Part shown: in pieces, positions 1 to 62,295 of the stretch
Position numbering within the stretch: position 1 is the first letter of the stretch
Layout: every line of letters starts with the position of its first letter
Origin: Pseudopyrenochaeta lycopersici
Lineage: Eukaryota; Ascomycota; Dothideomycetes; Pleosporales; Pseudopyrenochaetaceae
DNA: 64,000 bases
Direction of reading: 5' to 3'
Assembly: GCA_003313425.1 (NCBI GenBank)
Contig: NHZP01000010.1
Span: forward strand, 1,364,001-1,428,000
Notes under the pieces: model-generated
Database searches by the model: none
Told to the model about the DNA's origin: nothing
What the model saw: the letters and a program-made list of their open reading frames with translations, nothing else
Position numbers and translations under genes: made by a program

Positions 1-154
1 TTACAAATAATAAATAATAATAATAGTTTTCTATATTCATCTTTAGTAAATAGAGTATATTTAGCCTTTTTTCTACTATAAGAAAGACTACTTAAATTAG
101 TTGAAAAACTACTATACGCTTCTAAATTACTATTATCTTCTATACTATCTAGAA

Positions 155-388
<234 letters not shown>

Positions 389-31144: not shown

Positions 31145-33088
31145 CTAGACTTTCTCCTGGTTAGGCTGAGCCGCTCTCCTTGTCTCCCACTGTACCATAA
31201 CATTATGCAGCCGCGTCACAAAAGTGGACTCGATACTCCTCTCTCTCCAAGGCTCCGTGAACTTGAATTCTAGATTCATCATCAAAAGTGGAATGGCTTT
31301 GGTAAAGATTGCCTCTGCCAAATCTATCGTACTATTTATTAGCAATGATTGGAAAAGTTGAAACTAGAGTAAACGTACATTGCCCCGGACACGACCGTAC
31401 ACCATTTCCGAAGAACATGCTACTTGCCTCTACGTCTCATCAGTACGTGATCTCATTAAGAGTACCAGAAGTTCTTACCAGCAGCTTTGAGCTGCTCTGG
31501 GGAGAATTCTAGCCATCGTTCTGGCCGGAAAACATCGGCATCTTCACCATAAAGAGACTTGTCGCGGCCAAGAACCCAGGGGTTTACTCCTACTGTAGTC
31601 TACAGTCTTGATCAGTTTGCGTCCCTACTTCGATTACAGATTAAAACTCACGCCAGCAGGTAGCCAGTGTCCTTCGAGCTCGACGCCATCTTTGGGAACA
31701 ACTCTTGCTAGTGGATGTGCAAATGGGGGATGCAGTCTTTTGCTTTCGCTTAAACACGCGTTAAGGTATGGCAAAGACTCAATGTCTTTTAACTTGGGGA
31801 TTGGGTTCAGCGCTCTAGCTGCCCTCGCATCGTCAATCTCTCTCTGAATCTTTTCTTGGCAGCCCGGGTGGCTTATTACAAAACTAATAAACGTGCTAAT
31901 AGTTATGCCAATCGTCTCAACACCAGCGTTAAAACCCGAGATGCACATATCTTTAATCCAGTTGTTTTTCAAGGCGGGCTTCTCCGCTTGGATTTGGAAG
32001 AGTTTATCAGCAATAGTGTTTATATGTGAAGGTCGCCCAGTCTTTGCGATACGCTCATTAACTTCGTTCGCCGCAAGCTGTTATATCAAAGGTCAGAAAA
32101 CTCTTAAAGGACTTGCTGTAAGTACATTGCAGAGCTCACTGACCTGGTATATGCTAATTTTCTGCTTCTGTGGCGTAGCCTTGGGTTTAGGCCTACTCAT
32201 ATCTAGTCGTATATCTGGGAAAAATGATGACAAGCGCTTATACTTGGGAAGAATAGCGTGAATGTACCAAAGTCGTGTGCGGTGGACCAAAGGTAAATAA
32301 CCAACCCAATGCATATACAGCCATAGCTGGTGACCGAATGCAATCGCTCCGCAGTCAGCATTAGCTTCGACGAATCCCAAAGATTTTCCAAAAGTTGCCA
32401 TCTGGACGCAGTCTAACAAAATGAATCAGTTTAGATTCTGAAGAGTTTCAGTAACCACCTACCGGAAGCAAAGTAAGCAAAGAATGTATCGATGTTCACA
32501 CTCATACCAGCACGTTTTGCCATGATCATAATATTCTTTTCCAGGATCTCATCAATATTGCCTTCCACCTCCTTCATGAAACTGGCTGTATAAGCTGCTC
32601 CTATGAGCCGTCTCTGGAATCTGTATTTCTCCATGTTAAGCTCGGGAAGGAGGTCAAGATGGTCACTGCCGGACCACCCGCAATCATCTGTTGCAGAGTA
32701 CCAGGCTCCTTTAGTAAATTTGCTTGCAGCTCCTAGGCCACCAATGGAATTAGTACTGTTGCTCTCGCGCAGCCGGGGTCGACTCACCATAGATTATCTT
32801 CTTGGACTGCGGACTGGAGACAAGCACCTCGTTCGGGGCAACCCGAACAATTGGGCCGTACTTCCTGTGTAAAGCTAAATCGACAAGTGGCCTTTGAAGC
32901 CGACGTTGTTGCAGAACAATCCAGATCTGGGAAATGCTTGCCAGAAATGGGCCAGGTATGCGTCGGAGAGGGGTTACTTCTCGGTTGAAAAGAAGATACA
33001 AAAGACATGAAGCGATAAAAAATACTCCTAGAGACATGATACCGGTAGGAAACCCAACGATGGATACTGCACGGTCTACTGAAGCCAT
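31145..33088 (-). CDS. Cytochrome P450 monooxygenase
   Basis: Predicted 538-residue microsomal P450 in seven exons: 33088-32788, 32732-32463, 32412-32144, 32077-31652, 31599-31479, 31429-31379 and 31323-31145, with six introns of 49-66 bp. Every junction keeps phase, so the gene appears intact. It has an N-terminal anchor (about 16-35) and RRIPGPF hinge, I-helix AGVET (331-335), ExxR as ESKR (391-394), RPERW (about 447-451) and heme loop [11 protein letters not shown] with ligand Cys476. Overall it resembles pisatin-demethylase/benzoate-hydroxylase-like fungal P450s often found in metabolite clusters; substrate unknown. The ATG at 33088 is used; the frame stays open upstream without another ATG. 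Confidence 0.9.
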
Positions 33089-33764
33089 CTTAGAGGTGGT
33101 CTGCGTAGTTGACTCAAAATCAACTGAAATCAAAAGCAGCCAGATTTACAGCATCTAGGCAATGCCCAACTATATCATTATCGTTGTCTAAGATTGCTAA
33201 AAGGAGACAGGACTATTCCTCACGGCTGGCTCATATTCGGAGTGATCCCGCTTCGGTGTTCGTCCATCTCGCGTGGCTGAAATAATGTTGCCTGAGGCTG
33301 CTGTCGGGAGTTTACACTCAGACCCCGCATTCTCGGACAATTCCTGGCACGCTTCACCCGTCAATTACACTGGCACTGCATTCATTGTATAGCGTATCAC
33401 TCTAAGCAATAACGAAAATAGTCTGATATTCTTAGCTGCAAACTCCGCGCTTCCGCCATCGTCTGAAAATGACCGACCACGATGCTTTTACTTTTGCTAA
33501 TGCCTCCAAAAGCTGCACCCGCTGCAGACCGCGTGATTTGAGCCCCGGACTCCGTTCTACATGTTCAACCAGATCGGATCGAGTGGTTAACCACGACGGA
33601 TCATTTTCAACAAGCTACATCGATTCTCTGAGCACCATCAATAAGTATTTGACATGAAGAACTCACACATAAGAGCAAAGAGAGACAGAGGTAGTGCCAA
33701 CTAACCAGAAAATCAACTAAAACCTGTCTTTATCCAGCCACAAAGCCCTTTATTAAATATCAAA
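33089..33764. other. Divergent promoter region
   Basis: Lies between the starts of the second P450 and the NTF2-like gene and must carry both promoters. No gene seen. No full TCG-N5-CGA site was found by eye. Confidence 0.5.
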
Positions 33765-34313
33765 ATGCCTGCCCCTGCCGAAGTCCAAGCCGCTACCATC
33801 AACGAGTTCATTGAAGGGTGGAAGACAAAGAACCCTGACGCTTGGACAACCAATTGGACAGATGACTGCACGAACACTATCTTGCCCTTCTCTATGAACC
33901 ACCCGGGGTGGTCAAAAGACGACGTCCGCAACGTGCACCTGCCTAGGCTTTTCACTACCTTGTCGAACTGGCAGGTTTGTTTTCTCCTTGTATAAGTGTT
34001 CAAAATGAGAACTTACTCTGAATAGTTGAACGTCTACGATGTGATTCATGATGTCGCCAAGGGCAAAGCCTGCATCTACGCAACTTCTCGAGCGGACACG
34101 CCTTTTGGCGACTTTAAGTGGACTAACGAGTACGCTGCTTTCCTCACCCTGACTGAGGACGGAAAGCAGGTCAAAAAGATCGAGGAGATGGTTGACACAG
34201 CTTTCTTTGCGGAAATGGCGAAGCAAGGTGCTGCTCATGCTGCAGCGCAGAAGGAAAAGGCTGAAGCTTCTGCTTCGAAGGATGGGCCTTCCGCCCAGGC
34301 AGTCAAAGTTTAA
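33765..34313 (+). CDS. NTF2/SnoaL-like small protein
   Basis: Predicted 165-residue cytosolic protein from exons 33765-33974 and 34026-34313 (51-bp intron; the second exon starts with Leu, not Met). The sequence FIEGWKTKNPDAWTTNWTDDCTNTILPF followed by a strand-rich half (YDVIHDVAKGKACIYATSRADTPFGDFKWTNEYAAFLTL) fits the NTF2-like/SnoaL fold. Members act as polyketide cyclases, dehydratases or isomerases in aromatic-metabolite clusters. The Ala/Lys-rich C-terminal tail (from about 140) is probably disordered. Catalytic residues cannot be assigned with confidence. Divergent from the P450. Confidence 0.75.
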
Positions 34314-35281: not shown

Positions 35282-36739
35282 TTATCCTCTCACCTCAACA
35301 CTCCTGAAATCGAAAAACTTCTTAATATCTGGGTCCTCCAAAAGCATATTAATCGCATGAGTTTCAATTGGAAGCATAACCTCGATCCCTCCATCTCCAG
35401 CTTTGTAACCCTTGTGTGGCGGATACAAGATGATCATATTCTCCACTACAGTATTGTAGAGACATCTGTAAGCCACCGGCTGACCGACCCCAAAATCATT
35501 GTCACATAGCTTGGAATTCCTCCAATCGGTAGTCGTAAATGACATTGGTGGGAGAGAGTCAAGAGGCATATCTAGCTTAGATTTGTCCCGGATAGGCGCT
35601 ACTTTTGCCATCGTCTCATCCAAAGTATGTTGGCCGACGCTGTGGGTGATGGCTCGAATAAAGGCTGCTATCTGAGGCAAAGGTGCATCAGAAATCACCT
35701 CTGTCAGGTTGAGAGGGTTTTCTTGATGCATCGATAGCCCCGCCGCTAAGACATTGCCTTGATACCTTGCTGAGATATTTGGTGTACCTGGGCAGAACTT
35801 AGTTTCATATCTTAATCCGGGCGTAGTTGCGAACGACTTACATCGGTTTCGCATATTGATTGGCTCACCAAATATTGCCGGTGACAGCATATCTGGCTTG
35901 TATATCCTCTCCCGGATTCTCATTAAAACCCTCCAAAGTAGAGCTATCACCGCATCATACGTCGAGATCCAAGTACCATCCAAAGGCGTTGCAAGTTGTT
36001 TCAAGGCCCTAGACTTGCTAGGCGCGAGGTGAAATAATAACCACGAGCAGGGTAACCAGTCTGGGTGCCGTTTTGGCCTTGGCGGGGGATCAATTTGGTC
36101 GTCCACCGCGATATTTGGGGCAATAAAACGAGAACGCTCCATGAAAGATTCATTCCAACTAGGACTTGGCGTACGGTTTACGAATGAGTAGCAGTTCTCC
36201 GCTATTTGTCGGACTAAGCTGGTAGTGCCAGTCATATCTAGAGCAAAGTGGTGTACATGTGCGGTGAAGATGTACCCATTCCTGATAAAGTTGAGTTGAA
36301 ATCCAACCAAGATAGGACTATCATCCGGACATCGAGAGCCCGGTATTCCCTCAATCCCCAGGATTCCGTGATCTCCCAGGCTTGCAAGCGTAAAGTCAGC
36401 TCTTTCGAGGTCGTCGTACGAAGGGTAGTCGTCTGAGGGACTGTTCATCCACTGAACGACGAATTCAACAGTACTGTGAGCTTTCTTGACGATCGAGTAA
36501 TCCCCATGTGTGTTTTTCTGGATTGTTCCAACCAGATGCCGGCATTGTCGCAATGTTGCCTCAATGCCATGCTTGAATGCCTCAACAACAGCTGTTTCGC
36601 CTACACCATCTTGTTTGAAAATAATTGCGTAGGTGTTATAATTCGGAGGGACCACCATGTCCAGAACGGAGAGACGGAACCATTCTTCCTCAGAAGTCTG
36701 GAGATTTAGTGGAAGACGAAATGTTTGTTTTCTACGCAT
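35282..36739 (-). CDS. HXXXD-type acyltransferase
   Basis: Single-exon gene for a 485-residue cytosolic acyltransferase of the transferase family (PF02458, BAHD/trichothecene 3-O-acetyltransferase-like). It moves an acyl group from acyl-CoA to a hydroxyl or amine. The catalytic HHxxxD motif is present as HVHHFALDMTG (about 173-183), and the structural DFGWG-type motif as DNDFGVGQP near residue 418. Two pseudo-symmetrical halves of normal length are seen, with no sign of decay. In this setting it probably decorates the cluster product, with the acyl donor perhaps made by the acyl-CoA synthetase at the right edge (inference). Confidence 0.9.
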   Translation of the reverse strand: MRRKQTFRLPLNLQTSEEEWFRLSVLDMVVPPNYNTYAIIFKQDGVGETAVVEAFKHGIEATLRQCRHLVGTIQKNTHGDYSIVKKAHSTVEFVVQWMNSPSDDYPSYDDLERADFTLASLGDHGILGIEGIPGSRCPDDSPILVGFQLNFIRNGYIFTAHVHHFALDMTGTTSLVRQIAENCYSFVNRTPSPSWNESFMERSRFIAPNIAVDDQIDPPPRPKRHPDWLPCSWLLFHLAPSKSRALKQLATPLDGTWISTYDAVIALLWRVLMRIRERIYKPDMLSPAIFGEPINMRNRCKSFATTPGLRYETKFCPGTPNISARYQGNVLAAGLSMHQENPLNLTEVISDAPLPQIAAFIRAITHSVGQHTLDETMAKVAPIRDKSKLDMPLDSLPPMSFTTTDWRNSKLCDNDFGVGQPVAYRCLYNTVVENMIILYPPHKGYKAGDGGIEVMLPIETHAINMLLEDPDIKKFFDFRSVEVRG

Positions 36740-37107
36740 ATTGATTATTTGATAGTTCGCAATGTTCCTTGATACGCCTGTTGATCTTGTTGCTTTGCGG
36801 TTACATGCTTGCAGTCTCTATCAATTAGCTTTCATGCGGTCGGGATATCGCCATTGCGTACGGGATATTTTCCCCGGTAGTAAATGTTGGGTTGTGCTCG
36901 TCTAAACGTGTTCGGAACTCGGGCCATTATAGGCTGCCACCGCGTAGTACCAAGTCGGAATTTTAATTCAACGAAACGTACAGAACAGTTTAGAAGCCGG
37001 GCACGCCATTTTTTAGTTCCATATAATTTATCGTAAGCTTCCAGAACATTGTTTTAATCACACTCGAACTCCTAGAATCCAGTGCTAGACCTCAATATCC
37101 TACAAAC
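36740..37107. promoter_or_regulatory. Bidirectional promoter of acyltransferase and SDR
   Basis: 368 bp between divergent starts. Contains TCGGAACTCGG at 36912-36922, one base away from the AflR-type palindrome TCG-N5-CGA and very close to the TCGGAACCCGA sites at 43933 and 47233. Regulation by the local AflR-like protein is an inference. Confidence 0.4.
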
Positions 37108-38014
37108 ATGTCGCCAGTCTCACCACTTGTCCTGATCCTTGGCGCCGGTCCTAATATTGGTGCTAATGTTGCAGAGCAATTTGGTGCACAAGGCTACAAG
37201 GTCGTGTTGTCTTCGAGGAAGCAGCAAGAGAGTAGCAACCCTTCCTACTCTTACGTACATGGCGACCTAGCGGACCCCAAGTCAGTTGTCGATATTTTTG
37301 CACGAGTTCGTGAACTTCACGGAGAACCGAGTGTTGTGGTATACAACGGTAATTTATGTTTCTATTCAAGTCCTTTCAAATAGACTTCTAACATATGAGT
37401 AGCGGGTGCAGTATCCTATTCCCCCAAGGAGAACACATTCAATATCGACCTGGAAACTTTTGAATCCGACCTCAACATCAACACAACGAGCGTGTTCGTG
37501 GCTATCAAGGAAACTTTGAAGTCTTTTGCATCCCCCTCTCTTTCCGCTCAGGCTTCTAAGACCTTTATATACACGTATGTTGTCGCCCAATCTTTCTTTT
37601 CGACCCAACTCTCCACTCTTGATGTTTATAATGTGAAAAGAACTGACTCTTCATTGTTTTAGTGGAAATGCTATGAATTTCGCCTCATTTGACGGGCTGC
37701 TTACTTTGGGGCTTGGAAAGAGTGCCTCTGCGCACATGATACAATCTGCTGCTGCAGCCTTTTCGGAAAAAGGCTACAAGTCAGTTCTCTTTTGAATACC
37801 TGGAAAACTGTCCTCTAACTCTTCCAGGTTCTACTACGCGGATCAGAGACAGCCTGATGGAAAACTCTGTGGGAAAGGTATTAGTGGCCATTCCCATGGA
37901 AAATTCTACGTTCATCTCGCAGGGGGTGAAAAACAGGGACCTTGGTTGCAGACATTTGTGAAAGGGGAGGGTTATACTGAATTTCCCGTTGGGACTAATG
38001 TTACATTTGGTTGA
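37108..38014 (+). CDS. Atypical short-chain dehydrogenase/reductase
   Basis: Predicted 238-residue Rossmann-fold protein. Exons 37108-37348, 37403-37574, 37663-37779 and 37828-38014. The nucleotide-binding glycine motif is GAGPNIGANVAEQF near the N-terminus, with YNAGAVS as the NNAG-like strand. The usual catalytic YxxxK is not intact: the aligned segment reads LGLGKSASAHM, with Leu where Tyr is expected, and the active-site Ser is also unclear. I recall related fungal proteins with the same LGxGKSA pattern, so this may be a distinct non-classical subfamily and not a recent loss. Could be a reductase with a changed mechanism, or a binding/regulatory protein. The gene is divergent from the acyltransferase. 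Confidence 0.8.
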
Positions 38015-39674: not shown

Positions 39675-42600
39675 ATGTCGACTTCAACTACTACCACAAC
39701 TGTACTTGAAAAAAACAAGGAGGTCGAGACACCATTTACCAGCGGTGCTCGCAGGAGTGGCAGCAGTGTACAGTTTTGGCAGTCATATGTTCAGTCTCGT
39801 CCAGCGCCAACGGAAGATTTTTTCCAGGTCATATATGATTATCATCGAAGGTAAGATTTATCGCTGCTCCTGGTCTGAATATTGTCAAAGAACCCATGCT
39901 GCAGAGGTTTTTCGTACGATAGGCACATGAATTTTGTAACAGCATTCTGATTACCTTAAAAAGAATCGACTGACTCGGTGATCTCATAATCTAGTCATGG
40001 TGATAGCCGCACCGACATTGCCCACGACGTAGGAACTGGGCCCGGTAACATTGCTGCGAAGCTCGCTACTCATTTCAATCATGTGGTGGGATCAGATATC
40101 AATGAATCCGTGCTCGATGCAGCCCCATACCTAGTACCCAGCGAAGTGCTTGAGCGTATGACTTTTGTCCATTCTCCGGCAGAGGCTCTAGCGCAGAAAA
40201 CACCCGCACAAGTTGGTGGCCAAGCAACAACAGATCTGATCACTGTCAGCGAATGCATGCCTTTGTTGGACGAAACTACATCACTGAAGGCCTTCCAAAA
40301 GCTTTTACGCCCGGGGGGTACGTTGGCGATCTACTTCTATGGTCCGGCGGTTTTTGTGGATGGTAATGCAGATAATTGCAATGCTGTGTATGACCGGATC
40401 GCGACACGAATTTGCACCTTCAACCAGCCTATGAAGAACACACCAGGCTTTCCTTTCCATCTCCGCGCTGCAGAGGCTTTGATCAGCGAAATGGACAACA
40501 TTCCCATGCCTGCAGAGGATTGGGAGAACGTGGAACGGCACAAGTGGAACTGTGACTACCCCTTACTATTCAATAGTAAGGCTGGGTTTGACTTCGATTT
40601 CTCTCCAGTTGACCGAAGAACAAAGGACGAAATGACGAAGGAAGTCATCGATCGCAACTTTTGGGGTGTAGAGTGGGATATCAATAATGTCAAGTCGTAC
40701 CTGGACTCGCTTTATCCAAATTACCGTCATAAGGCAGGTGCGCGGTATGCTGAACTGGAAGACATGTTCGGTGAGCTTCATGCAGCCATGGGCAAAGAGA
40801 AGAGAAAGGTTACATTTCCTATTGTACTGATTCTAGCGACTAAAAAGGACGGATCCGAATTGCCTAAGGCCAACCAGGTCCAGATCTCCCCAGGCCATCT
40901 CGGCCTCGGACGTATTAGTGAGAGCCCACCTGGATCCATCGAGAAAGCAAACCAGCTACTCCAAAAGAATCACGATGAGTTTCATATCTTCTGGAGAGAC
41001 CTGAATGGCCATAACCACATGGCACATTCTATCTTGACCACATTTGCCCTTAGCGCGAGCCCATCTGAGCTGCAGCGTGCATACGATGACGGCGTCGGCG
41101 TCCAACGTCCCATGCCGGACCTCGATATCGAAGCCGTCAAGAGTCTCTCTGATGATAAGAACCTCACGGCAATCTTTGGTGAACTCCCGCAATATACCAA
41201 TACCCTTGAATTTTTTAGACAACAAATTGACTTGTTCGGGTGGAGGGCAATCCTACATAAGTACTGCTTCAGCCGCACCCCAATCGCGGATACCATACTT
41301 GCTCGCATGTACGAAGGAGCTCATCATCCATTCATCCATCTCGGTTTGGCGGTGGAGTTCCAATTACCTAGCATCCTCGCCGAAGCTCTCGCACAAGCTG
41401 TGTGCCATCCATACTCAGGCATTCCGGACTGCCTTTTACAGACGGATGTGGAAGCTCGCGAACTGGAAAATGGAACACCTCATAAGCCCCTTTTGGAGCT
41501 ATATAAGGAAGCGCGGGCAAGCAAATCGATCTTGCAGGGCGCGCGCTGGGAAGATGGACCTTTCAAGATGAGAGACGGCACCCTTGGGCGGTCAAAGGCC
41601 GATATCACGTCTCTTGCCGCCCAGTATCGTGTTCGGCCATCCGAATTAGAACTGCGCGCAGCGGAAGTGATTAACTGCTCGGCCTACGTTGCGGGCGGGG
41701 CACAACGTGCCAACAAGTCACCTAAGATTGACTTCTTCCATATGCACAACGTGACCAGCTCCATTTTTTTGACCGTCTTAGTTCAGGACCCATGGATCAG
41801 CCTAGAGAATAAAGTACGAATGGTGGAATGGAAGGCCCGAACTGACCTTCTATGGTATGCCGCTTGTGGTTGTGCCGAGTTCGACATTCAAGAGGTCAAC
41901 AACTACCAAGCCGGCCCAAGCTCTGGTATGGGATGGAGCGAACTCTACCACGCCGTCAATATGATGCACGATGACGGACATGTGGCCAAGTTTGTACGTG
42001 CGCTCAAGAGCGCTGAAGACATCTGCAAGCAATTTGAACAACAGGACCCTGAGGCGTTCCAAATGAAAGGAGACGCATGGATCCAACTTGCACGCATGTC
42101 TTATGATACAACCCTTGGCCTTGCCCCGGAAATCAAGTGGGTGCCAGGAGCGGGTTTCAACCAAGCATGGGAGGCTGCGCAAGTCCCTCCCCGAGCGGCG
42201 GCAGCTGTAGTGGCACCACCACCACCGAAACCTCGGGTCTTCCCTTCCCTAACTAAGAAATACCATAAGACTGCCTACGAGCAAATAGATCCCAGTCTTC
42301 CTGCTTTGTCTGCGGTGGGCAAAAACATTGTTGTTACAGGTGGCGGTACTGGCATTGGTGCTGCGACTGCCTTGGCGTTCGCTCAGGCTGGAGCTGCAAG
42401 CATCAACATTCTCGGTCGGAGAACCGAGCTTCTGGAAGAAACCCGAAGCCACATAGTATCCCTAGTCCCAAGTGCCCAAGTCCATGTTTATGGCACGGAT
42501 GCAACTGATAAGGATGCAGTCAACGCCACATTCCAAGCCATCAATCGACTTGTTGGCGAGATTCATGTTCTAGTGAATAACCACGGCTATAAGCCAAAGG

Positions 42601-43170
42601 TGGCACCCAAGAACAGCGCCATCAAGGATATCGATGTCGACGAGTGGTGGAAATGTTTTGAAGTCAACATTAAGGGTGCTTTCAATATCACCCAAGCATT
42701 CCTGCGTTACAACTCCCCAGATGCAGTGGTTGTCTACGTGACCACTGCGTTATCTCACTTTGACGGCTTCCCCAACAGTTCATCCTACAGTTCGAGTAAG
42801 GCTGGCGGTGTGAGAGTTTTCAGTACTCTTCAAGCTGAACATCCTGAGCTGAGAGTCGTGTGCTTACATCCAGGAGTCGTCAACACGGGTGTGGTCCGGG
42901 ATGCAAAGGTTGCGGGAATGGCAGACGATGGTGAGTTTTGGTACTTTTATCAACCGACAGAGCCAGTATTCTGACGTTCTTTTCACAGTATCTCTCCCAG
43001 CAGGTATCATGGTCTGGCTTGCTAGTCCTGAGGCAGCTTTTCTAAAGGGTAAGTACATTTGGGCCAACTGGGATGTGTCGGAGATGAAGGAAAGAGCGGA
43101 AGAAATAGCCAAAAGCGATCTTTTGACTATGAAATTAGGGGGATGGCCATTCCCTTACAAGTCTGCTTAA
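39675..43170 (+). CDS. Trifunctional fusion: methyltransferase - questin-oxidase-like - SDR
   Basis: Predicted 1097-residue protein; exons 39675-39850, 39995-42930 and 42989-43170. Residues about 30-360 form a SAM-dependent methyltransferase (motif I VGTGPGN at 71-77, acidic SDIN after the next strand, LLRPGGTLAIYFYG). Residues about 372-789 are a questin-oxidase-like domain (DUF4243; LLQKNHDEFHIFW, FSRTPIAD, GAHHPFIHLGLAVEFQ, AEALAQA), the family of AflY and the Baeyer-Villiger-type enzymes that open anthraquinone rings. A Pro/Ala-rich linker (about 790-812) leads to a classical SDR with TGGGTGIG at 840 and catalytic YxxxK at 990-994. The first two domains and most of the third share one 2.9-kb exon without a stop, so a gene-joining error is unlikely. 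Inferred role: successive steps on an aromatic polyketide. Confidence 0.9.
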
Positions 43171-44071
43171 AGGACATAACATCCATCGCGTTAAAAACAA
43201 TTATGTGCGCTTGCTTAATTGATTCATATATTTGCAATTACTCTAAGCTGCCCTACATTTTGCGTAGATTCTGTATCCTCTTACGCAAGGGTTTGGTCGG
43301 AGGTTAAAGCCCACAATCACGAAAAACAATGTTGAATCTATGGATGGCGTCTGTTGTCTCGTATGGAGAAGGACTCTAATAAACGGGTTCTTTTGTAACT
43401 TCGATGACACCCTAATCGCTGGCAGCGCTGAGGTAAACGTCTCACACTACTTCGGTAAAACTTCTCTATCTACGCCTTTCGCACACGTGACAGGCCCGAG
43501 TTTCCTTTAATCGTAGCAGGCTTAACGCAGCCCAAGTCAGTGTGATGAAGTTAATCATGGTGTAGGCCTGTCTGGATACACTAAAGCTAATGAAAGCCAA
43601 TGAACGCGAAAATGGATTTGAGACACCCACAGAAGTCATTGCGCGAGTCAGACCCAAACTTAGGGCAGGCGATCCAAAGACCCTGCAGATCGGATGCACC
43701 AACAAATGCATTGATAGTTAGGGTCCCCTGCTTAGGTTTTACCGTCCTGTATCCGGCTGCTCTGTCATGCAGTCAGCCGACGGAATAGGTGAGCTCTCCG
43801 GCGTTGTTCCGCAGTATCTCGCATAAGCGGGCTAGTGCGCGCATTGAAATTTTATTATCCGTGAAATCGACGGAAGTCCGCAATGTCCGATCAACTCTAG
43901 GAAATAGAAAAATTGTCCGCGTTTTTGAATAGTCGGAACCCGAGCAGGGACGGCATCTTATCGACGAGATCAAACGGCAAGGAGACACCATGACAAACGT
44001 GCTTCTTTGATTGAACTTTATGGGGCTCCTCTTGCTGATCAGTATCGACTCGAGATAGTCCCAATGAAGCT
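43171..44071. other. Intergenic region upstream of the second SDR
   Basis: No gene recognised; short frames at about 43466-43991 lack family features. The promoter of the SDR at 44072 with an exact TCG-N5-CGA site lies near the right end. Confidence 0.5.
43933..43943. promoter_or_regulatory. Candidate AflR-type site TCGGAACCCGA
   Basis: Exact match to TCG-N5-CGA, the site bound by AflR in aflatoxin clusters, 129 bp before the SDR start at 44072. The full 12-mer TCGGAACCCGAG recurs upstream of the FAD monooxygenase. A single TCG-N5-CGA is common by chance; the shared inner bases give it more weight. Confidence 0.4.
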
Positions 44072-45046
44072 ATGGGATTCTTCTACAGTCAGTTTTTTGT
44101 GCAGTTGCCCTACCCTACCGGTTCATACACTGGAAAGACGGTTATCATTACCGGCAGCAATGTCGGTCTTGGCAAAGAAGCAGCAAGACACTTTGTCCGC
44201 ATGGGCGCCAGCAAAGTCATCCTCGCGGTCCGCAGCCTAGAGAAAGGAGCTGCGGCTCAGCTTGATATTGAGGCTACGACTCACCGCTCGAGTGATGTCC
44301 TTCAAGTATGGAAGCTCGATATGGCTTCCTACGCCAGTGTCCAGGAATTCAGCGCCCGTGTCGAGGCCCAACTGGTTCGTGTTGACATTTTCATTGCCAA
44401 CGCCGGGATCGCGCCAGCCAAATACACCACGTTCGAGGATAACGAAGCAAGCATCACAGTCAACGTTGTTTCGACACTTCTACTGGCAGCTCTGATTTTA
44501 CCCAAAATGAAAGCCACTGCTGCCACATTTGGCACACGACCAACGCTCACGATTACATCGTCCGACGTCCATGGCCACACAACATTTCCTCAAAAATCTG
44601 CTCCAGACGGCGAAATACTTATCACGGTGAATGATAAACATACTGCAGAGAAGCAGTGGGATGACCAGTACCCAATCTCAAAACTACTTGAAGTGTTTGC
44701 AGTCCGCTCCATTGCTGAATTATACGGATCTTCAACATATCCCGTGACAATTAACACAGTCAATCCGGGACTGTGTCACTCTGAACTTGGGCGTGATTTT
44801 GGGATTGGATTTTGGTTAATCAAACTCATTCTGGCACGGTCAACTGAGGTCGGAAGCCGCACGTTGGTGCATGCTGCATCTGCGGGTCCTGAATCACATG
44901 GTCAGTATCTTTCAGACTGCAAGATTGCTGCGCCTGCTCCTTTTGTTACAAGTGACGAAGGGAAACGTGCGCAAGACCGTGTATGGGATGAACTGGTGAA
45001 AAAGCTTGAAGTCATTAGGCCGGGAGTATCGAAAAACTTCAAGTGA
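44072..45046 (+). CDS. Short-chain dehydrogenase/reductase, retinol-dehydrogenase-like
   Basis: Single-exon gene for a 324-residue NAD(P)-dependent oxidoreductase. Complete motif set: cofactor glycine motif TGSNVGLG near residue 27, IANAGIA, active-site region TITSSDVHGH and catalytic YPISK. VNPGLCHSEL after the active site is also typical. It resembles fungal retinol-dehydrogenase or WW-oxidoreductase-like SDRs that act on ketones or alcohols, including cluster intermediates. The first 18 residues are hydrophobic-aromatic but too short to call a membrane anchor. The in-frame ATG at 44072 is used. It converges with the FAD monooxygenase. Confidence 0.9.
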   Translation: MGFFYSQFFVQLPYPTGSYTGKTVIITGSNVGLGKEAARHFVRMGASKVILAVRSLEKGAAAQLDIEATTHRSSDVLQVWKLDMASYASVQEFSARVEAQLVRVDIFIANAGIAPAKYTTFEDNEASITVNVVSTLLLAALILPKMKATAATFGTRPTLTITSSDVHGHTTFPQKSAPDGEILITVNDKHTAEKQWDDQYPISKLLEVFAVRSIAELYGSSTYPVTINTVNPGLCHSELGRDFGIGFWLIKLILARSTEVGSRTLVHAASAGPESHGQYLSDCKIAAPAPFVTSDEGKRAQDRVWDELVKKLEVIRPGVSKNFK

Positions 45047-52997: not shown

Positions 52998-54524
52998 TCA
53001 TGTTCCGGACAAAGTTCTGACAATGTTCTCGCACAGCTCATGCAAGTGATAGCTCAAGTTACTCGCAAGGCTCTGGCCTAGATTCGACGGGCTGGAAGAA
53101 TTGAACGCTGGCCCCTCGAGCAACAGATTCTCCGTAATAGGAGACACAAGTTTAGTCGAGGAATTGGAAGTGCTTTGTTTTTCTTCCACCGCTGTGAGCC
53201 GCTGCGTCAAGAGATTTAGAGTGCGTCGAACGCTATATAAACTCGATAGGACGATCTGGCAAACGATGCGGTCTTCGTAGTCTATATCCATATCATATTC
53301 TTGCATAGTTGATTGCAAGGGACGGCGTACAATGGGTGGTTTCTGTCCCAGGGAGCTGGCAGGTGTGATGGAATCCGAGTCATCCAAGACGTGTTCTTTC
53401 GGGGTGTGTGGTGCCGCATTTGCGCAAGCAGTATACCACCCGAGCATCTTGAACATGACCAGGGCGACGGTAATGAGCAATACAGAGTTTCGAGAGCAAG
53501 GGCAGTTCAGAATCTTGTCAATTTCGTCGAGCGCCGCTTGGTTCTGAGCCATGACGCCTTCGAAACTCGTGGACGTGGGGGCATGATTCTTCTCTCCATC
53601 TTGCGTGCATGATGCACCACTCCATTGAGGCGTCAATTGGTCTAAATGCGACAAGCAACGAGCAAGGCAGCCGCCCGAAGAGTGCCTATTGAGCGACGAT
53701 GGGGAGCTTGGCAAAGCGCAATTTTTGATCGCTGGAACATCTGATGTCGACCCGAAAGCACTGTTCGCCGCATCGGTGACTGCAAACCAATTAATCGAAT
53801 CTGCTGGGGATGCTGCCGTGCGTTGACTGCCAGAGGGGATGGGAGTCTCAATATTGATGATATTGCCTCCAGTGAGACTGATGTTGGATACATCCTGTAT
53901 TGATTCTGTAGCTTTATCGAAAAGCTGCATTCCATTGGCATCGTTACCAATAGTAGAGTGAAAGAGAAACGAATCCCAGTTGAATGTGCGGTTGTCATCA
54001 AACAAACTGGGCGTTGGTGAAGCAGTCAATAGCTGTGAGAGAGGCTGAGTCAAGGTTGGAATCGAAGAGGCAAGATCGTCCTTATCCACTGCCGATGTCG
54101 ACATGCTATCGGAAAGGCATGCATACGCTGGGAAGGACCAGTCAAAGGTCTGGTGGGACATGCTCGGTGGAGGTGTGAAGATACCTGATGTGTCGGTCAT
54201 GTCGTTTGGCCAGCCAGCATTTGAGGACTCAGACGACGGACAAGCACTCGCTGCACTCGTCGGAACAGAGATGGGTGGATTGGATCCGCCTTCCACTTGC
54301 GTTGAGGGAGTCTCCTGCCGTTGCTTGTTTTTCGAAGGTCGACCGGCTCGCTTGGTTGCAATGTAGACACACGTTATGTCTCGTCTCTCACAGCGCGAAC
54401 AGGTAGGCCTCTCTTTGGTGCAGCCGATCTTGGAATCGGCACATGCTTTGCAGCTGCTCCGCATCTTGGGAGGGCCGGTAGCATCGCTCGTACGTGGCTT
54501 CGAGTTCAAAGATTTGGGCGGCAT
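52998..54524 (-). CDS. AflR-like Zn2Cys6 transcription factor
   Basis: Single-exon gene for a 508-residue nuclear regulator. The Zn2Cys6 binuclear cluster lies near the N-terminus with spacing C-x2-C-x6-C-x6-C-x2-C-x6-C (SCKACADSKIGC through DITC), preceded and followed by basic residues. The C-terminal half has the AflR-domain signature CSRNSVLLITVALVMFKMLG with downstream helices (DRIVCQIVLSSLYSVRR). AflR binds TCG-N5-CGA and switches on aflatoxin-type clusters. The middle is Ser/Thr/Pro-rich and poorly conserved. The ATG at 54524 (MPPKSL) is the first in frame. It is divergent from the AflS-like gene, the same head-to-head layout as in aflatoxin and sterigmatocystin clusters. Confidence 0.92.
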   Translation of the reverse strand: MPPKSLNSKPRTSDATGPPKMRSSCKACADSKIGCTKERPTCSRCERRDITCVYIATKRAGRPSKNKQRQETPSTQVEGGSNPPISVPTSAASACPSSESSNAGWPNDMTDTSGIFTPPPSMSHQTFDWSFPAYACLSDSMSTSAVDKDDLASSIPTLTQPLSQLLTASPTPSLFDDNRTFNWDSFLFHSTIGNDANGMQLFDKATESIQDVSNISLTGGNIINIETPIPSGSQRTAASPADSINWFAVTDAANSAFGSTSDVPAIKNCALPSSPSSLNRHSSGGCLARCLSHLDQLTPQWSGASCTQDGEKNHAPTSTSFEGVMAQNQAALDEIDKILNCPCSRNSVLLITVALVMFKMLGWYTACANAAPHTPKEHVLDDSDSITPASSLGQKPPIVRRPLQSTMQEYDMDIDYEDRIVCQIVLSSLYSVRRTLNLLTQRLTAVEEKQSTSNSSTKLVSPITENLLLEGPAFNSSSPSNLGQSLASNLSYHLHELCENIVRTLSGT

Positions 54525-55181
54525 ATCGTATGAGCACAAGGGAGGGATGCAACAGAGATTGAGGGACCTGTAAGGCTAGACCGCACGTCTGATGTACTTA
54601 AGCTTTTGACTGCCCAGATGTTCACTCAGCAGCCAATCCCGCTAAGCGTTAGGAAGCCTTTGAAGAAAACCTTATTGCTTGGAATGGCCGTCTTCCGTGC
54701 TTAGAGATTGCTGGGGAATTCCTTCAAATGTAGCACTATGCAGGCTGACGCTGGTACTGCGTTCTTACTGCGTTGGAGGCGCTGAACCCAGCAGACTTAG
54801 CGCCAATAAAGCGACGTAGATAATTGGGCCCGACGAAACGGCTTGTGGACAACCCCGTTATCTATGCGCTCTGGATCCTGCGGCGTTATCACGGCGAGCA
54901 TTACTTGCGCAGTCGGCTGAGCAAGTGGCTCATCGAAGCGGGGAGGGCTTGAGGGCGTACGGGCCGCTTCGGGGTGGCTTCGGATGAATGCATCTAGGGC
55001 GCGCACTGCAAAAGCCAAACTGCCCGGCACAAACCTGTTCGGTTTGCTAAGCTAGGATCGAAAACGCCACTGAAAAGGGCGAGCATTGCCCGACCTGTTC
55101 TTATAAGCATCTCTTGATTACATCAAACTGCACCCCCACGTCCATCAGCCTCGCAGCCAGAAGAGCATCTTTGTTCGAGTC
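54525..55181. promoter_or_regulatory. Shared AflR-like / AflS-like promoter
   Basis: 657 bp between the divergent starts of the two regulators. No gene seen. By layout it should drive both. I found no exact TCG-N5-CGA site here. Confidence 0.55.
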
Positions 55182-56395
55182 ATGAGTGAAGAAGCCGCAG
55201 ATGTCGTGCAGCACCTAGCCCAGCAGGTTGGTGAAGGCAGCCGTATGAGCTATCATTAGCGCGCCGGACTAATGGGAATCGACAGGCTCAACTTTTGGCC
55301 TCTTTACATTGGCTGAGCAGTCTCCAAGTGCTCGCAAGCATTCCGCTCTCACAAACAGTTCCTGTCCAAGATGTAGCCGATGTTTCTGGCGTGCCGTATC
55401 AACAACTACTTCGTTTGATCCGGACGACGGCAACAGCAGGGTTCTTGCAGGAGCCGCAGCCGGGGCTTGTTCGACATAGCGCGCTCTCAGCGCAGTTTGT
55501 CAAGAAGCCTTTCCTTACTGATGCGGTCGCTTTCTTGAGCGACACGGCCCTCCCTGCAGCTCTGCAGATGGTGACGGCCACACGACACGGGATCCAGCTG
55601 CCAAACAGCAAACAATGCGAGCTTAACCTGGAAACTCAATCGGAGCTGTCGCTGAGCGCCAGATGCAAACGATGTCCAAAACTGAAACGGCAGGTGGCGG
55701 CCTATGACCGGTTGCGCCAAAATGCTTTTGATGACAGCGTGACTGAGATTCTGTCCCGGCTCGACTGGACCAGCTTGGGCGACGCGACTGTAGTTCAGGT
55801 AGGCCATTGTCTGACCCAAGGATAGCCATAATTTTACTTATCCCTGCATGAATAGGTGGGCGCGCGTTCCACCGCAACAGCCCGCACATTACTAGCCCAA
55901 CATCCCGGTCTCCACTTCATCATACAGATGACGGAAAAGGACGGGCCCGACGCGCTGAAACAGCCCGACTCTCGGATCAACGTGCAATTCCGAGCGCGTG
56001 GAGAGAGCCAGCGTTTCAAGGCTGCTCAGGTTTTCATTCTCTACTTGGGAGGGGCCTCGCTCTGCAGCGCGCGCGAAGAGGTTGCAGCCGAAATTGCTGC
56101 AGAGATGCGAATTCACTTTGGCGTGCTCCGTGCCAACAGTAAGGCAAGACTGCTGCTAGTAGCAGAGCTGTTGCCTGATCCAGACCAGGCAGAGAGCAGG
56201 ATTGAGGCGGCGGCGCGGTCTCACGATCTTTTCCTGATGCAATTGGCAAACGGAGGACTCTTGGACATGGCCCGGCTACAGGAACTGCTTTTGGACGTGG
56301 ATGGTGCTGGTGGGAGCTTTGCGGTCGTGAACCAGGTGTTCTCTCGGCAGGGGCCCACGGTGGTTTTGCAAGTGAGGATTGCGGAGAGCATGTAG
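55182..56395 (+). CDS. AflS (AflJ)-like cluster co-regulator
   Basis: Predicted 365-residue protein with an O-methyltransferase-like fold that in aflatoxin clusters partners AflR and raises its activity, without methyltransferase activity being required. Exons 55182-55226, 55286-55798 and 55856-56395. Exon 1 (MSEEAADVVQHLAQQ) was added because exon 2 starts mid-family at AQLLASLHWLSSLQVLASIPL and lacks an ATG. Typical blocks are VPVQDVADVSGVPYQQLLRLIRTTATAGFL, FDDSVTEILSRLDW and a Rossmann-like second half (VGARSTATARTLLAQHP). The SAM-binding glycine motif is degenerate (VGARSTATA). The N-terminus is shorter than in many homologues, so an extra upstream exon is possible. Confidence 0.85.
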
Positions 56396-58990: not shown

Positions 58991-59586
58991 AGGAGTAGAG
59001 GATTAAACCATGTATGATACATCAGCCAGCTATACACAACTATTCAAACTTAGTAATTATGTTCCAGAGGTATTGCCACTACCCTCCAGCCGCTCGAAGC
59101 TGGAAGTAGTCCGGATTATCTAAGCTAAGGCATTCTATCCCGTTTTTAGCTGTAATAGCACCCCGCATGATTGTATGGACCTTCATCTATGGTTCAAGTC
59201 TAGTCTCAAGCACACTCTGTTAGCAGACAAGGCTGCCCTGTATCGCGGTCCCACTGAGCTTTCTGGTACTTCCGAGACCTCGGAATCCGAGCCTCAGGAA
59301 TTATGTCAGCTTGAGCTGACCACCAATAGCTGCGAAACGCTCTCCATCGCCGTGCTCGGCCAATTCTGACCAAACATCCGACGACACAAGCTTCTTTCTC
59401 CCTTACCGGCTTGGAGCAACACGGCTGAACAAAAAAAAAGTCATATGTTTTGGGAGACCAGAAGATTTGTCAAAACCCGATGCCTACATAGAGGTATATA
59501 GGTGATCATTTTAGACACTGACACAGACCATAGACGCATGCTCAATAAGTTATTGCGAATTTGTTACCACACCCTTTGTTCCTAAA
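58991..59586. other. Intergenic, promoter of NmrA-like gene
   Basis: About 600 bp between two + strand genes. No coding feature. Contains the palindrome TCGGAATCCGA listed separately. Confidence 0.5.
59280..59290. promoter_or_regulatory. Candidate AflR-type site TCGGAATCCGA
   Basis: Palindromic match to TCG-N5-CGA, 297 bp upstream of the NmrA-like gene. Its half-site TCGGA is the same as in the sites at 36912, 43933 and 47233. Confidence 0.35.
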
Positions 59587-60649
59587 ATGTCTCCAAGGTT
59601 GATCACTGTTTTTGGCGCAACCGGAGCCCAAGGAAGCGGCGTTATTAATACTGTCCTAGCCGTTCCAACGTTAAAAGACAAGTACACCTTGAGGGCAGTG
59701 ACTCGCGACACAGAGAGCGCCAAATCGCAAGCTCTCAGGCAGAGAGGTGTGGAGCTAGTCAAGGGCGACTTGAACGATGTCGAATCTCTCAAGGCCGCTG
59801 TCAAGGGTTCATACGGCGTCTTCGGCATGACCGACTTCTGGTCTGTCCACTCGCAAGAAATTGAAATGCAGCAGGGCAAGAATCTCTTCGAGGCCTGCAA
59901 GGCTCAGGGTGTTCGTCATTATGTGTGGTCGTCTCTGCCTCATGCGCTTAAATTGACCAATGGAGCCCTTACGCAGCTCCCTTACTTCGACGGGAAAGCA
60001 ATAGTGGAAGAGTACATTGAGGCAAATAAGGGTGATATGATTGCTTCCTACTTCTGGCCTGGTAAGAGTCGTAGCCTGAAATGTCCTGTGTTCATGGTTC
60101 CGGAGCGCTAACTATTTCTACTCAGCCATGTTCTTCAGCTTCATTGAGAACCTCATCCGCGGCGGTCAAGACGGAGCTCCGCATCTGACTCTACCCGTCT
60201 CTTCCGAGAACTCGCTCTGGCCATTCATCGATCCTCCCAGCGACGGTGGCAAGTTCATCATGGGCCTCTTTGAAGCTGGCGAAAAGAGCAACGGCGCGCA
60301 AGTTCATGCCGTTAGCGCTTGGACCACGCCCAAAGAGCTAGTTGCGGCACTCAGCAAAGAAGCCGGAAAGGAGGTTGCTCTCAGACTCATCCCTGCAGAT
60401 GTGTTCGCGAAGGACTTCCCGGACAATATTACAGGCCAATTGACCGAGACGCTGCTCATGGCCATTGAGAACGGTGTGTACGGCAAGGGCGAGGACAAAA
60501 ATCAAGCTGAGCATGACAAGTGGCTGGTTGGAGGAGGGGGCAAGAAAGCTACACTTCAAGGGTGGGTTCATGAGAACGGGCCGTGGTCTTTTGAGACGAA
60601 GAGTTTCTTCGATGTCTTGGCGGCTCAGAAGGCAGCGCAGATTCCGTAG
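59587..60649 (+). CDS. NmrA-like NAD(P)-binding oxidoreductase
   Basis: Predicted 332-residue extended/atypical SDR of the NmrA family. Exons 59587-60061 and 60126-60649 (64-bp intron). N-terminal NAD(P) motif GATGAQGSGV, then VTRD, VKGDLNDVESL, GVRHYVWSSLPH. NmrA proteins range from redox-sensing regulators that bind NAD(P) without catalysis to enzymes such as AflX of the aflatoxin pathway. The Tyr/Lys catalytic pair of classical SDRs is not evident, which is normal here. In an AflR/AflS cluster with an AflY-type domain, an AflX-like part in anthraquinone-to-xanthone conversion is a reasonable guess. It converges with the second NmrA-like gene. Confidence 0.88.
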
Positions 60650-61150: not shown

Positions 61151-61945
61151 CTAGGAGGGCCCAGTAGAAGGCAAATACGGATGCATGAAAGGGAAGTAGT
61201 GTCTCAGCAATCCCACCAAAATGCACTTTGGCGTTCCAGGAGGAAACCGAGCCCCGCCATTCCTATTTACGACACTTACATTCTTCATATCGTAGATCCC
61301 TTCCTTGCTATCTGCGGCCTCAATCATAGCAGCAGCCAGGTCCAGGTACGAAATAAAACTCTCTTCGTGGTCTAGACTGAGTTTGTGTCCACGCTGGATA
61401 TCTACTGACAGACCCCCAGGCTTGATAAAGATTGTCGAAACCCAGTCTTGTTGTGCCCGGAGGAAATTTTCTGCCACTCTTAGATCGTGATAGACGTTGG
61501 ATGCGGCGGTGAGCATAATGGGGCGGAACCACCATGGCATTTTGCGGGCTAGGTGGTCGTCGATCGTTGCTGAAGATAGAAGGACTAGTTTCGGCATTCG
61601 CAGAGTTCCAGGCGCCGATTCAGCTTTCAACCTCTCCAGGGCGCTGATGACAGTCTTGGCTTGGTCTTGACCCAGACGGCAACCGGGAATATTGTCGTTG
61701 GATGTGACGACCATGAAGACGGCACTGCAATCCTTGATGCACGAAACCATCATATCGACATCGAGGATGCTGCCTTCATACACTTTGACCTTCTTGCTTT
61801 CATTTATCTGGGGCAGCAGGCGGACCAACTTGTCCTTGTTTCGGCAATAAGCATTGATCCCGGCTGTGGTATTTGACGCAAGAAGGTTCTCGATGAGTGC
61901 GGTGCCACAGTTTCCGGTCGAGCCCAATACTGCGTAGGTGGACAT
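61151..61945 (-). CDS. NmrA/isoflavone-reductase-like NAD(P)-binding protein
   Basis: Single-exon gene for a 264-residue protein with the N-terminal nucleotide motif [20 protein letters not shown], the FMVVTSNDN strand and [11 protein letters not shown]. It belongs to the NmrA/isoflavone-reductase-like group but is not a close copy of the gene at 59587. AflX (OrdB) of the aflatoxin pathway is a protein of this general type; whether this is its counterpart needs a phylogeny. The ATG at 61945 places the glycine motif at the expected distance; the frame is open a little further upstream but without ATG. The C-terminal segment ([25 protein letters not shown]) resembles family tails. Confidence 0.85.
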
Positions 61946-62295
61946 GGTGAGTGTATCTGTAGTGTTTTGAAGGGAGATAGTATTCAAAGATTGGGTACAT
62001 GGCCAAAACTTTGTGACATTCCACTGATAAGAGCATGACTATAGTGTTGCGTGAAAAGTCCCCGCTGATAGATTCCTCGGGCCTTTTCTGCTCAACGCAC
62101 GAAAAGTCGGATAATTCCCGCGTCAATGGTCCGAATTCACCACTACTCTCCTCCCTTCGTACAACAAGGAGCAAATCATAATCCTGGTGTGCTGTCTTGG
62201 CTTGCGGCAGATGAACCAGATATCTCGGCACAAGGAAGCATATTCTAGAGCGCGAATCGGCTCTATTCTGGCGAATGAAGACAAAAAAATCAGAT
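61946..62295. other. Intergenic, promoter of the second NmrA-like gene
   Basis: 350 bp between the NmrA-like start and the 3' end of the acyl-CoA synthetase gene, both minus strand. Nothing else seen. Confidence 0.5.

What the first reader, a model, noticed from the sequence alone, without database searches (positions are those of the whole stretch)
39675..43170. Three-enzyme fusion: methyltransferase, questin-oxidase-like and SDR in one protein
Seen: one 2.9-kb exon without a stop joins a complete SAM methyltransferase, a complete DUF4243 (questin-oxidase-like) domain and, after a Pro/Ala linker, a classical SDR with an intact YxxxK. Known: DUF4243 proteins such as AflY and the questin oxidases are separate proteins in the clusters I know and open anthraquinone rings in a Baeyer-Villiger-like way. 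Inferred: the fused order suggests reduction, ring opening and O-methylation on one polypeptide, with channelling of unstable intermediates. I know of no described enzyme with this architecture.
Basis: partly seen in the sequence, partly recalled or inferred. Interest (0 to 1): 0.88.

Follow-up and report, generated by a model that had tools for sequence, protein, structure and literature searches.

The report
Three-enzyme anthraquinone ring-opening fusion protein
A fungal gene joins three pathway enzymes, a methyltransferase, an anthraquinone ring-opening dioxygenase and a reductase, into one protein that other fungi also carry, which suggests that a fragile step in making xanthone-type compounds is carried out by one assembled machine.

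Summary
One three-exon gene (39675-43170, +) encodes 1,097 aa: SAM methyltransferase, PF14027 'questin oxidase' domain, Pro/Ala linker, classical SDR. Twelve of 30 relatives listed carry all three domains; the three named ones are two Pleosporales and one Leotiomycete. Twelve more have methyltransferase and PF14027 only, one in reversed order.

The Baeyer-Villiger reading is outdated: PF14027 enzymes are ring-cleaving dioxygenases acting on anthraquinone hydroquinones (PMC9890505). Putative metal-site residues are kept in 24 of 24 aligned fusions. The gene lies in an emodin-family cluster: TE-less NR-PKS, metallo-beta-lactamase TE, EthD, anthrone oxygenase, AflR, NmrA reductase, NsrQ-like cyclase.

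Most likely the middle domain opens the ring, the methyltransferase esterifies the released carboxyl (nearest fold: yeast trans-aconitate methyltransferase) and the SDR does an NADPH ketoreduction; all substrates are inferred. Elsewhere the dioxygenase is fused to an NmrA reductase, an NsrQ-like domain or, reversed, the methyltransferase: a recurrent fusion hub.

Nine searches of an open-access library turned up no report of such fusions. New variant of a known kind.

The parts
39675..39850 (+). Exon 1: ATG and residues 1-58 (plus 2 bases of codon 59), N-terminus of the methyltransferase
   Evidence: GT at 39851, AG at 39993-39994; frame closed without splicing
39851..39994 (+). Intron 1, 144 bp
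   Evidence: GTAAGA...CTAG
39995..42930 (+). Exon 2, 2,936 bp: rest of methyltransferase, dioxygenase domain, linker, most of SDR
42931..42988 (+). Intron 2, 58 bp, position apparently conserved in relatives
   Evidence: GTGAGT...ACAG; 9 of 9 unnamed three-domain rows lose homology here
42989..43170 (+). Exon 3: SDR C-terminus and stop
   Evidence: matches the C-termini of P0001, P0002, P0005
40026..40331 (+). SAM-binding methyltransferase core (residues 70-171 of a ~345-aa domain)
   Evidence: Methyltransf_25/12/11; motif DVGTGPG; PtaI (P0195) is 58% identical over the searched stretch
41010..42005 (+). PF14027 ring-cleaving dioxygenase domain (residues 398-729); putative metal ligands H403, H503, H643, H721, K724
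   Evidence: 312.8 bits; AflY 8yxs 466.6 bits, BTG13 7y3w 390.2 bits; residues conserved
42180..42236 (+). Pro/Ala-rich linker (residues 788-806)
   Evidence: sequence; in the model of the relative P0001 residues 798-809 have pLDDT below 50
42321..42902 (+). Classical SDR domain (residues 835-1028, continuing into exon 3): TGGGTGIG, GRR, N950, T976, Y990, K994
   Evidence: adh_short 123.6 bits; conservation
33765..34313 (+). NsrQ-like SnoaL-type xanthone cyclase/isomerase gene, two exons (exon ends approximate)
   Evidence: tblastn with the P0125 C-terminus, E 1.6e-26; PDB NsrQ 7f0o E 1.3e-35
31634..33145 (-). Cytochrome P450 gene (pieces)
   Evidence: PF00067 on 31634-32080; 32750-33145 has no Pfam match, assigned to the same gene by eye
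35282..36817 (-). Acyltransferase (PF02458)
37027..37383 (+). First exon of a separate SDR gene (end of gene not determined)
   Evidence: adh_short 27.0 bits, cut-off 26.6
44039..45046 (+). Separate SDR gene
   Evidence: adh_short 78.3 bits
45416..46741 (-). FAD-dependent monooxygenase (main exon)
   Evidence: PF01494
47636..48361 (-). Hemerythrin-like protein
   Evidence: PF01814
49337..51379 (+). MFS transporter (pieces)
   Evidence: PF07690 in both large open stretches
52998..54575 (-). AflR-like regulator (Zn2Cys6 + PF08493)
55235..56395 (+). Possible AflS-like coactivator (two ORFs)
   Evidence: by eye only; no Pfam match
59515..60649 (+). NmrA-family protein (two exons)
   Evidence: PF05368
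61151..62038 (-). NAD_binding_10/NmrA reductase, candidate anthraquinone-hydroquinone reductase
   Evidence: PF13460; 64% identical over 230 aa to the NmrA part of the Aspergillus rambellii NmrA-dioxygenase fusion P0026; MdpK is listed with the same Pfam family in PMC5635595 (passage)
62573..64000 (-). AMP-binding (acyl-CoA synthetase-like) gene, running past the window end
   Evidence: PF00501

Best explanation
A genuine trifunctional tailoring enzyme of an emodin-family (probably xanthone-forming) gene cluster. Shown: three conserved domains with most catalytic motifs intact on one chain; the middle one belongs to the AflY/BTG13/GedK ring-cleaving dioxygenase family and keeps the putative metal ligands; the cluster encodes the enzymes expected to make emodin (TE-less NR-PKS, metallo-beta-lactamase TE, EthD, anthrone oxygenase), an NmrA reductase and an NsrQ-like cyclase. 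Inferred mechanism: emodin (or a derivative) is reduced to its hydroquinone, most likely by the separate NmrA reductase at 61151-62038; the dioxygenase domain cleaves the central ring with O2, giving a benzophenone with a free carboxylate; the methyltransferase domain methylates that carboxylate; the FAD monooxygenase and NsrQ-like cyclase act next; and the SDR domain, tethered by a flexible Pro/Ala linker, performs an NADPH ketoreduction of the type done by NsrO in blennolide formation. Fusion would keep unstable intermediates with the enzymes that consume them.
Against: PMC9890505 assigns PtaI, the closest named relative of the methyltransferase domain, to phenol methylation (emodin to physcion), by elimination, which contradicts the carboxyl assignment. 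The SDR's function is not fixed by homology: its near relatives (52-65% identical) are a fusion fragment and three unnamed SDRs, then similarity falls to 38-45% (120 of 491 rows shown); NsrO/DmxR3 were not among the names printed. The SDR's catalytic Ser position is Thr or, by the strict 13-residue spacing, Ala. Two other SDR genes in the cluster could do the ketoreduction. None of the four scytalone-dehydratase (MdpB-family) matches found in the genome is on this contig, so the route is probably not the chrysophanol route of known tetrahydroxanthones. No transcript, protein or metabolite data. pTM 0.63, and pLDDT averages 53 at residues 391-400, next to the metal site, so the model fixes neither domain arrangement nor that loop.
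Confidence: 0.42

Rival explanations
1. The SDR domain is the hydroquinone-forming anthraquinone reductase, so that one chain performs reduction, ring cleavage and methylation in order (the first reader's order, with a dioxygenase in place of a Baeyer-Villiger enzyme).
For: The dioxygenase needs a reduced substrate. Reductases are fused to this dioxygenase at least twice in other fungi (NmrA type, P0025 and P0026/P0027). The SDR carries the GRR motif usual for NADPH use (recalled) and N, Y and K of the tetrad.
Against: A separate NmrA reductase of the kind fused to the dioxygenase elsewhere is in the cluster. No anthrol or naphthol reductase is named among the SDR's best 60 of 475 PDB hits. 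Twelve two-domain proteins lack a fused SDR.
Confidence: 0.3
2. The methyltransferase domain is a phenol O-methyltransferase acting before cleavage (emodin to a physcion-type ether), not a carboxyl methyltransferase.
For: PtaI (58% identical) is assigned to emodin-to-physcion methylation in PMC9890505 because PtaH, not PtaI, resembles GedG/TpcM.
Against: That assignment is by elimination. The closest fold, by a clear margin, is a carboxyl methyltransferase. The family is fused to or beside the enzyme that creates the carboxylate, in both orders.
Confidence: 0.35
3. Gene-model or assembly artefact: neighbouring genes wrongly joined.
For: No transcript evidence. One close relative (P0013, Neocucurbitaria cava) is annotated without the SDR.
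Against: A continuous 2.9-kb open frame joins all three domains. Twelve relatives keep the same fused order at 68-91% identity over the covered part.
Confidence: 0.03
4. The SDR is a passenger with little or no activity, kept as a scaffold or stabiliser.
For: Catalytic Ser position is Thr in 10 of 13 rows, or Ala in 12 of 13 if the strict 13-residue spacing to Tyr counts.
Against: Cofactor glycines, Asn950, Tyr990 and Lys994 are kept in 13 of 13 rows; Ser is present at 976 in 3.
Confidence: 0.08

Closest known systems
AflY / BTG13 / GedK / PtaJ / MdpL ring-cleaving dioxygenases (PF14027)
   Same: Central domain: 466.6 bits to AflY 8yxs, 390.2 bits to BTG13; 54% to PtaJ, 49% to DmxR6; putative metal ligands kept
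   Different: AflY, BTG13, PtaJ and DmxR6 are single-domain proteins of about 445-460 aa; here the domain is the middle of a 1,097-aa chain
PtaI methyltransferase (pestheic acid cluster)
   Same: 58% identity over the searched stretch, similar length; ptaI/ptaJ carry consecutive locus tags (PFICI_10834/10835)
   Different: Separate gene in P. fici; fused N-terminally here
Two-domain methyltransferase-dioxygenase proteins (Metarhizium 'HypA', Sodiomyces, Lecanicillium, Lachnellula)
   Same: Same first two domains in the same order; one clade with the three-domain proteins (SH-aLRT 100)
   Different: No SDR; no characterisation found
NmrA-dioxygenase fusions (Delitschia P0025, Aspergillus P0026/P0027)
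   Same: A reductase fused to the same dioxygenase
   Different: NmrA-type reductase at the N-terminus, no methyltransferase; outside the methyltransferase-dioxygenase clade, in two places on the tree
Neosartorin/blennolide pathway (NsrF, NsrG, NsrK, NsrQ, NsrO)
   Same: Set of functions: ring cleavage, methyl ester, FAD hydroxylation, NsrQ cyclase, SDR (PMC9890505, passages); NsrQ-like gene in the window
   Different: Separate proteins there; that pathway also lists deoxygenation enzymes, and no scytalone-dehydratase match lies on this contig
Halogenase/O-methyltransferase 'bifunctional protein' of griseofulvin-type group V clusters
   Same: A fused pair of tailoring enzymes in a group V NR-PKS cluster (figure legend of PMC4591646)
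   Different: Other enzyme families; no ring-cleaving dioxygenase

Membership tests
PF14027 ring-cleaving dioxygenase | Full-length match to the family profile | tested here: met
   312.8 bits against a cut-off of 27, profile 2-340 of 340
PF14027 ring-cleaving dioxygenase | Metal-site residues of BTG13 (four His and carboxylated Lys377; the role is recalled, positions computed) | tested here: met
   K377 falls on the conserved DDGHxxK lysine; equivalents of H58, H158, H296, H374, K377 present in 24 of 24 aligned fused rows. Which His are ligands was not verified, and PMC9890505 calls GedK cofactor-free
PF14027 ring-cleaving dioxygenase | Cleavage of an anthraquinone hydroquinone | not testable with these tools
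   needs enzyme assay
PtaI-type class I SAM methyltransferase | SAM motif and family-level identity | tested here: met
   DVGTGPG, SDIN; 58% to PtaI; groups with the standalone family on the tree
Carboxyl methyltransferase (Tmt1-like) | Methyl ester formation on a carboxylate | not testable with these tools
Classical SDR | TGxxxGxG and N-S-Y-K tetrad | tested here: inconclusive
   fold-family match met (adh_short 123.6 bits) and glycines, N, Y, K kept; the Ser position is Thr at spacing 14 or Ala at spacing 13
MdpC/AflM-type anthrol reductase | Close similarity to known members | tested here: inconclusive
   best PDB hits are generic SDRs at 67 bits or less; no anthrol or naphthol reductase among the 60 of 475 shown
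Group V (emodin-family) NR-PKS cluster | TE-less NR-PKS with separate metallo-beta-lactamase TE, anthrone oxygenase, EthD, AflR | tested here: met
   SAT, KS, AT, ACP then stop; Lactamase_B; Anthrone_oxy; EthD; AflR. The PT region was seen by eye only
Tetrahydroxanthone (neosartorin-type) cluster | NsrQ-like cyclase | tested here: met
   E 1.3e-35 to 7f0o
Tetrahydroxanthone (neosartorin-type) cluster | MdpB/NsrI dehydratase (scytalone dehydratase family) in the cluster | tested here: not met
   four matches in the genome, none on contig C10; so not filed as a member

The most novel reading that the evidence does not exclude
The anthraquinone ring-cleaving dioxygenase is a fusion hub around which fungi repeatedly assemble a metabolon. 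In this lineage a three-enzyme machine (methyltransferase-dioxygenase-SDR) was built stepwise and performs consecutive steps on one chain without releasing the hydroquinone or the ring-opened acid, with the PtaI-type domain being a carboxyl methyltransferase, contrary to PtaI's current assignment.
Probability: 0.3. Interest if true: 0.72.

Novelty: new variant of a known kind. Interest (0 to 1): 0.52.

Why it matters
Ring cleavage of anthraquinones is the branch point to grisandienes, diphenyl ethers and xanthones (PMC9890505). The 1988 'questin oxygenase' activity was lost on fractionation and returned when fractions were recombined (same source), so how the reduced intermediate is handed over is open. 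Natural fusions of the dioxygenase with candidate neighbouring enzymes offer single-gene systems in which channelling can be measured. They also give a direct test of a methyltransferase assignment (PtaI) that rests on elimination, and they suggest which enzymes act next to each other.

Tried and rejected
Baeyer-Villiger mechanism: rejected as outdated. Gene-model artefact: rejected on conservation. MdpC/AflM identity of the SDR: not supported, inconclusive. GedG/TpcM carboxyl methyltransferases, NsrO and GedF could not be compared, as their sequences were not retrieved. Relatives' genomic neighbourhoods were not fetched (genome contigs holds bacteria and archaea; metagenome scans are capped at 0 and were not asked for), so co-location rests on equal printed contig lengths and locus tags. 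Short equal lengths can coincide: the SDR row P0264 and the dioxygenase row P0142 share 2,766 and I do not count them; the pair P0125/P0211 (3,644) carries the same doubt. The C-terminus of P0125 had no Pfam match and was recognised only by the PDB sequence search. Structure models were made for P0001 and P0158, not for the window protein. Literature searches; no report of a two- or three-domain PF14027 fusion among what I saw. One search was too broad to be useful. Of the papers listed I opened seven, seeing passages of each and one whole section of PMC9890505; the others were seen as listings only. Trees are 'quick' ones with SH-aLRT only. The methyltransferase tree is less clean than the dioxygenase tree: the three-domain label needs 3 changes and the two-domain label 5, against 2 and 3. 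On it the standalone rows P0157 and P0189 fall among the fused rows and P0149 at their base, and the two-domain pair P0019/P0021 falls by the three-domain proteins, so later splits, gene-call fragments and wrong placement cannot be told apart.
Full report
What is there. The stretch 39675-43170 (+) holds one gene of three exons (39675-39850, 39995-42930, 42989-43170), with GT-AG introns of 144 and 58 bp, encoding 1,097 aa. Both introns are needed: the unspliced frame of exon 1 stops just inside intron 1, and that of exon 2 stops at 42972. Pfam finds a class I methyltransferase (70-171), PF14027 'questin oxidase-like' (398-729; 312.8 bits) and adh_short (835-1028; 123.6 bits).

More than chance. 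A protein search listed 30 relatives. Twelve (P0001-P0012) carry all three domains in the same order, 12 (P0013-P0024) carry methyltransferase and PF14027 only (P0024 in reversed order), 3 (P0025-P0027) carry an NmrA-type reductase fused to PF14027, and 3 (P0028-P0030) have no PF14027 domain. Three of the twelve bear organism names: Phaeosphaeriaceae sp. PMI808 (91%) and Neocucurbitaria sp. VM-36 (87%), both Pleosporales, and Stipitochalara longipes (73%), Leotiomycetes. The other nine bear none and are presumably metagenomic. In 9 of 9 of these, homology ends at the intron-2 position, so the intron looks conserved. The three-domain order therefore exists in two classes of fungi and is not an assembly accident. 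The three named entries are called 'hypothetical protein' or bear a model name. The window's genome (62.7 Mb, 188 contigs) is most likely a Pleosporalean fungus, by its nearest relatives; this was not tested further.

The central domain. The best solved relatives are AflY (8yxs, 466.6 bits), BTG13 (7y3w, 390.2 bits) and PaD, deposited as 'Hydroquinone Dioxygenase' (8z4q, 192.8 bits). The review PMC9890505 (passages and parts of its table; section 3.1 in full) states that ring cleavage is not a Baeyer-Villiger reaction: an NADPH-dependent reductase (GedF) makes the hydroquinone and GedK, called a cofactor-free dioxygenase there, cleaves it. The agnestin paper PMC6335632 (passages) likewise makes AgnL4, the MdpK/GedF relative, the reductase that forms the hydroquinone. 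[quoted passage not shown] that its iron is held by four histidines and carboxylated Lys377 is recalled. In my numbering of the BTG13 chain Lys377 is the lysine of the DDGHxxK motif, which is K724 here. That lysine and the equivalents of H58, H158, H296 and H374 (H403, H503, H643, H721) are present in 13 of 13 three-domain rows (window included) and 11 of 11 two-domain rows; the reversed fusion P0024 was left out of this alignment. Two neighbouring positions vary once each (T646 and H717, 12 of 13 three-domain rows).

The SDR domain. TGGGTGIG glycines, GRR arginine, Asn950, Tyr990 and Lys994 are kept in 13 of 13 rows. The catalytic Ser position is unusual: T976, 14 residues before the Tyr, is T in 10 and S in 3 rows, and the residue at the standard spacing of 13 is Ala in 12 of 13 rows; only P0005, with a loop one residue shorter, has Ser at 13. 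Outside the fusions, the nearest relatives are three apparently standalone, unnamed SDRs (P0201, P0216, P0219; 54-57% over the domain), then similarity drops to 38-45%. A further hint at a partner comes from PMC11149221 (passages): in another fungus an SDR 67% like NsrO (g5687) and a DUF4243 protein 59% like NsrF (g5688) bear consecutive gene numbers, with an NsrQ-like gene in the cluster. The substrate of this SDR is unknown.

Evolution. On the dioxygenase tree (77 rows) the methyltransferase-dioxygenase proteins form one clade (25 rows, SH-aLRT 100), with the three-domain proteins in a nested clade (15 rows, 99). That nested clade also holds P0013, which lacks the SDR, and P0031, probably a gene-call fragment. 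The permuted fusion P0024, the NmrA fusions (two places) and P0125 (dioxygenase followed by a domain matching NsrQ, E 1.3e-34) lie outside it. The SDR tree puts all fused SDRs together (94), with the three standalone ones as nearest relatives (98). The methyltransferase tree agrees in outline only (99 for a 27-row set holding the 24 same-order fused rows and 3 standalone ones). So the methyltransferase and dioxygenase were probably joined at least twice, in both orders, and the SDR was added later.

The cluster. To the right of the window the same contig has a TE-less NR-PKS (SAT, KS, AT, ACP, then stop; product-template region by eye), a divergent metallo-beta-lactamase TE, an anthrone oxygenase and an EthD match (C10:1429359-1429700). 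In the window lie an AflR-like regulator, FAD monooxygenase, hemerythrin-like protein, acyltransferase, two further SDRs, MFS transporter, AMP-binding protein, P450, a NAD_binding_10/NmrA protein 64% identical to the NmrA part of a dioxygenase fusion, and an NsrQ-like cyclase at 33765-34313. MdpK, the reductase of the monodictyphenone cluster, is listed with the same Pfam family NAD_binding_10 (PMC5635595, passage). None of four scytalone-dehydratase matches is on this contig, so the substrate is probably an emodin-type rather than a chrysophanol-type hydroquinone. The hemerythrin, SDR and acetyltransferase set resembles genes listed only for the cryptosporioptide cluster in PMC9890505 (table).

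How it most likely works. Emodin-type hydroquinone, made by the NmrA reductase, is cleaved by the middle domain; the methyltransferase esterifies the new carboxyl; the SDR reduces a ketone formed later with the FAD monooxygenase and NsrQ-like cyclase. Shown: domains, motifs, cluster content, conservation. Inferred: all substrates, the order of steps, channelling. In the model of P0001 (pLDDT 89.0, pTM 0.63) the stretch between methyltransferase and dioxygenase (341-370) averages 81-94 while the dioxygenase-SDR linker is disordered (798-809 below 50); residues 391-400, by the metal site, average only 53. This would suit a close pair with a tethered third enzyme; the arrangement itself is not established.

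Novelty. The parts are known enzyme families and the pathway logic is known; the three-domain architecture and the hub behaviour of the dioxygenase were not found in print in the searches (open-access library only). In the main texts of PMC9890505 and PMC4591646 the word 'fusion' does not occur, nor 'fused' in the latter, although a figure legend of the latter lists a halogenase/O-methyltransferase bifunctional protein. The passages on DUF4243 in PMC5635595, PMC11149221 and PMC5640708 mention no fusion with another enzyme. A new variant of a known kind.

Noticed in passing
   Followed up: partly
   Followed up: partly
P0028, Chaetothyriales sp. CBS 135597: An annotated protein appears to run together the end of a metallo-beta-lactamase TE, an AflR-like regulator and a PtaI-like methyltransferase, probably a merged gene model that shows gene order.
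   Followed up: partly
G000 contigs C123, C129, C137, C147, C171, C79 and others: Ketosynthase matches with equal or nearly equal scores on many small contigs: an amplified PKS or unmerged copies in the assembly.
   Followed up: no
window 18675-24324 (+): A nucleoside-phosphorylase-like ORF followed by a 1,433-aa ORF with an NPHP3_N domain and many ankyrin repeats, like a fungal NLR-type receptor (recalled).
   Followed up: partly
window 3-458 (-): Very long asparagine run in an open frame at the left edge.
   Followed up: no
G000:C22:88698-91159: A second PF14027 gene lies beside a scytalone-dehydratase-like match, so the genome may have another ring-cleavage cluster.
   Followed up: no
L009, right of the PKS: Stop-ridden, retroelement-like sequence follows the PKS and may mark the cluster's right edge (by eye).
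   Followed up: no
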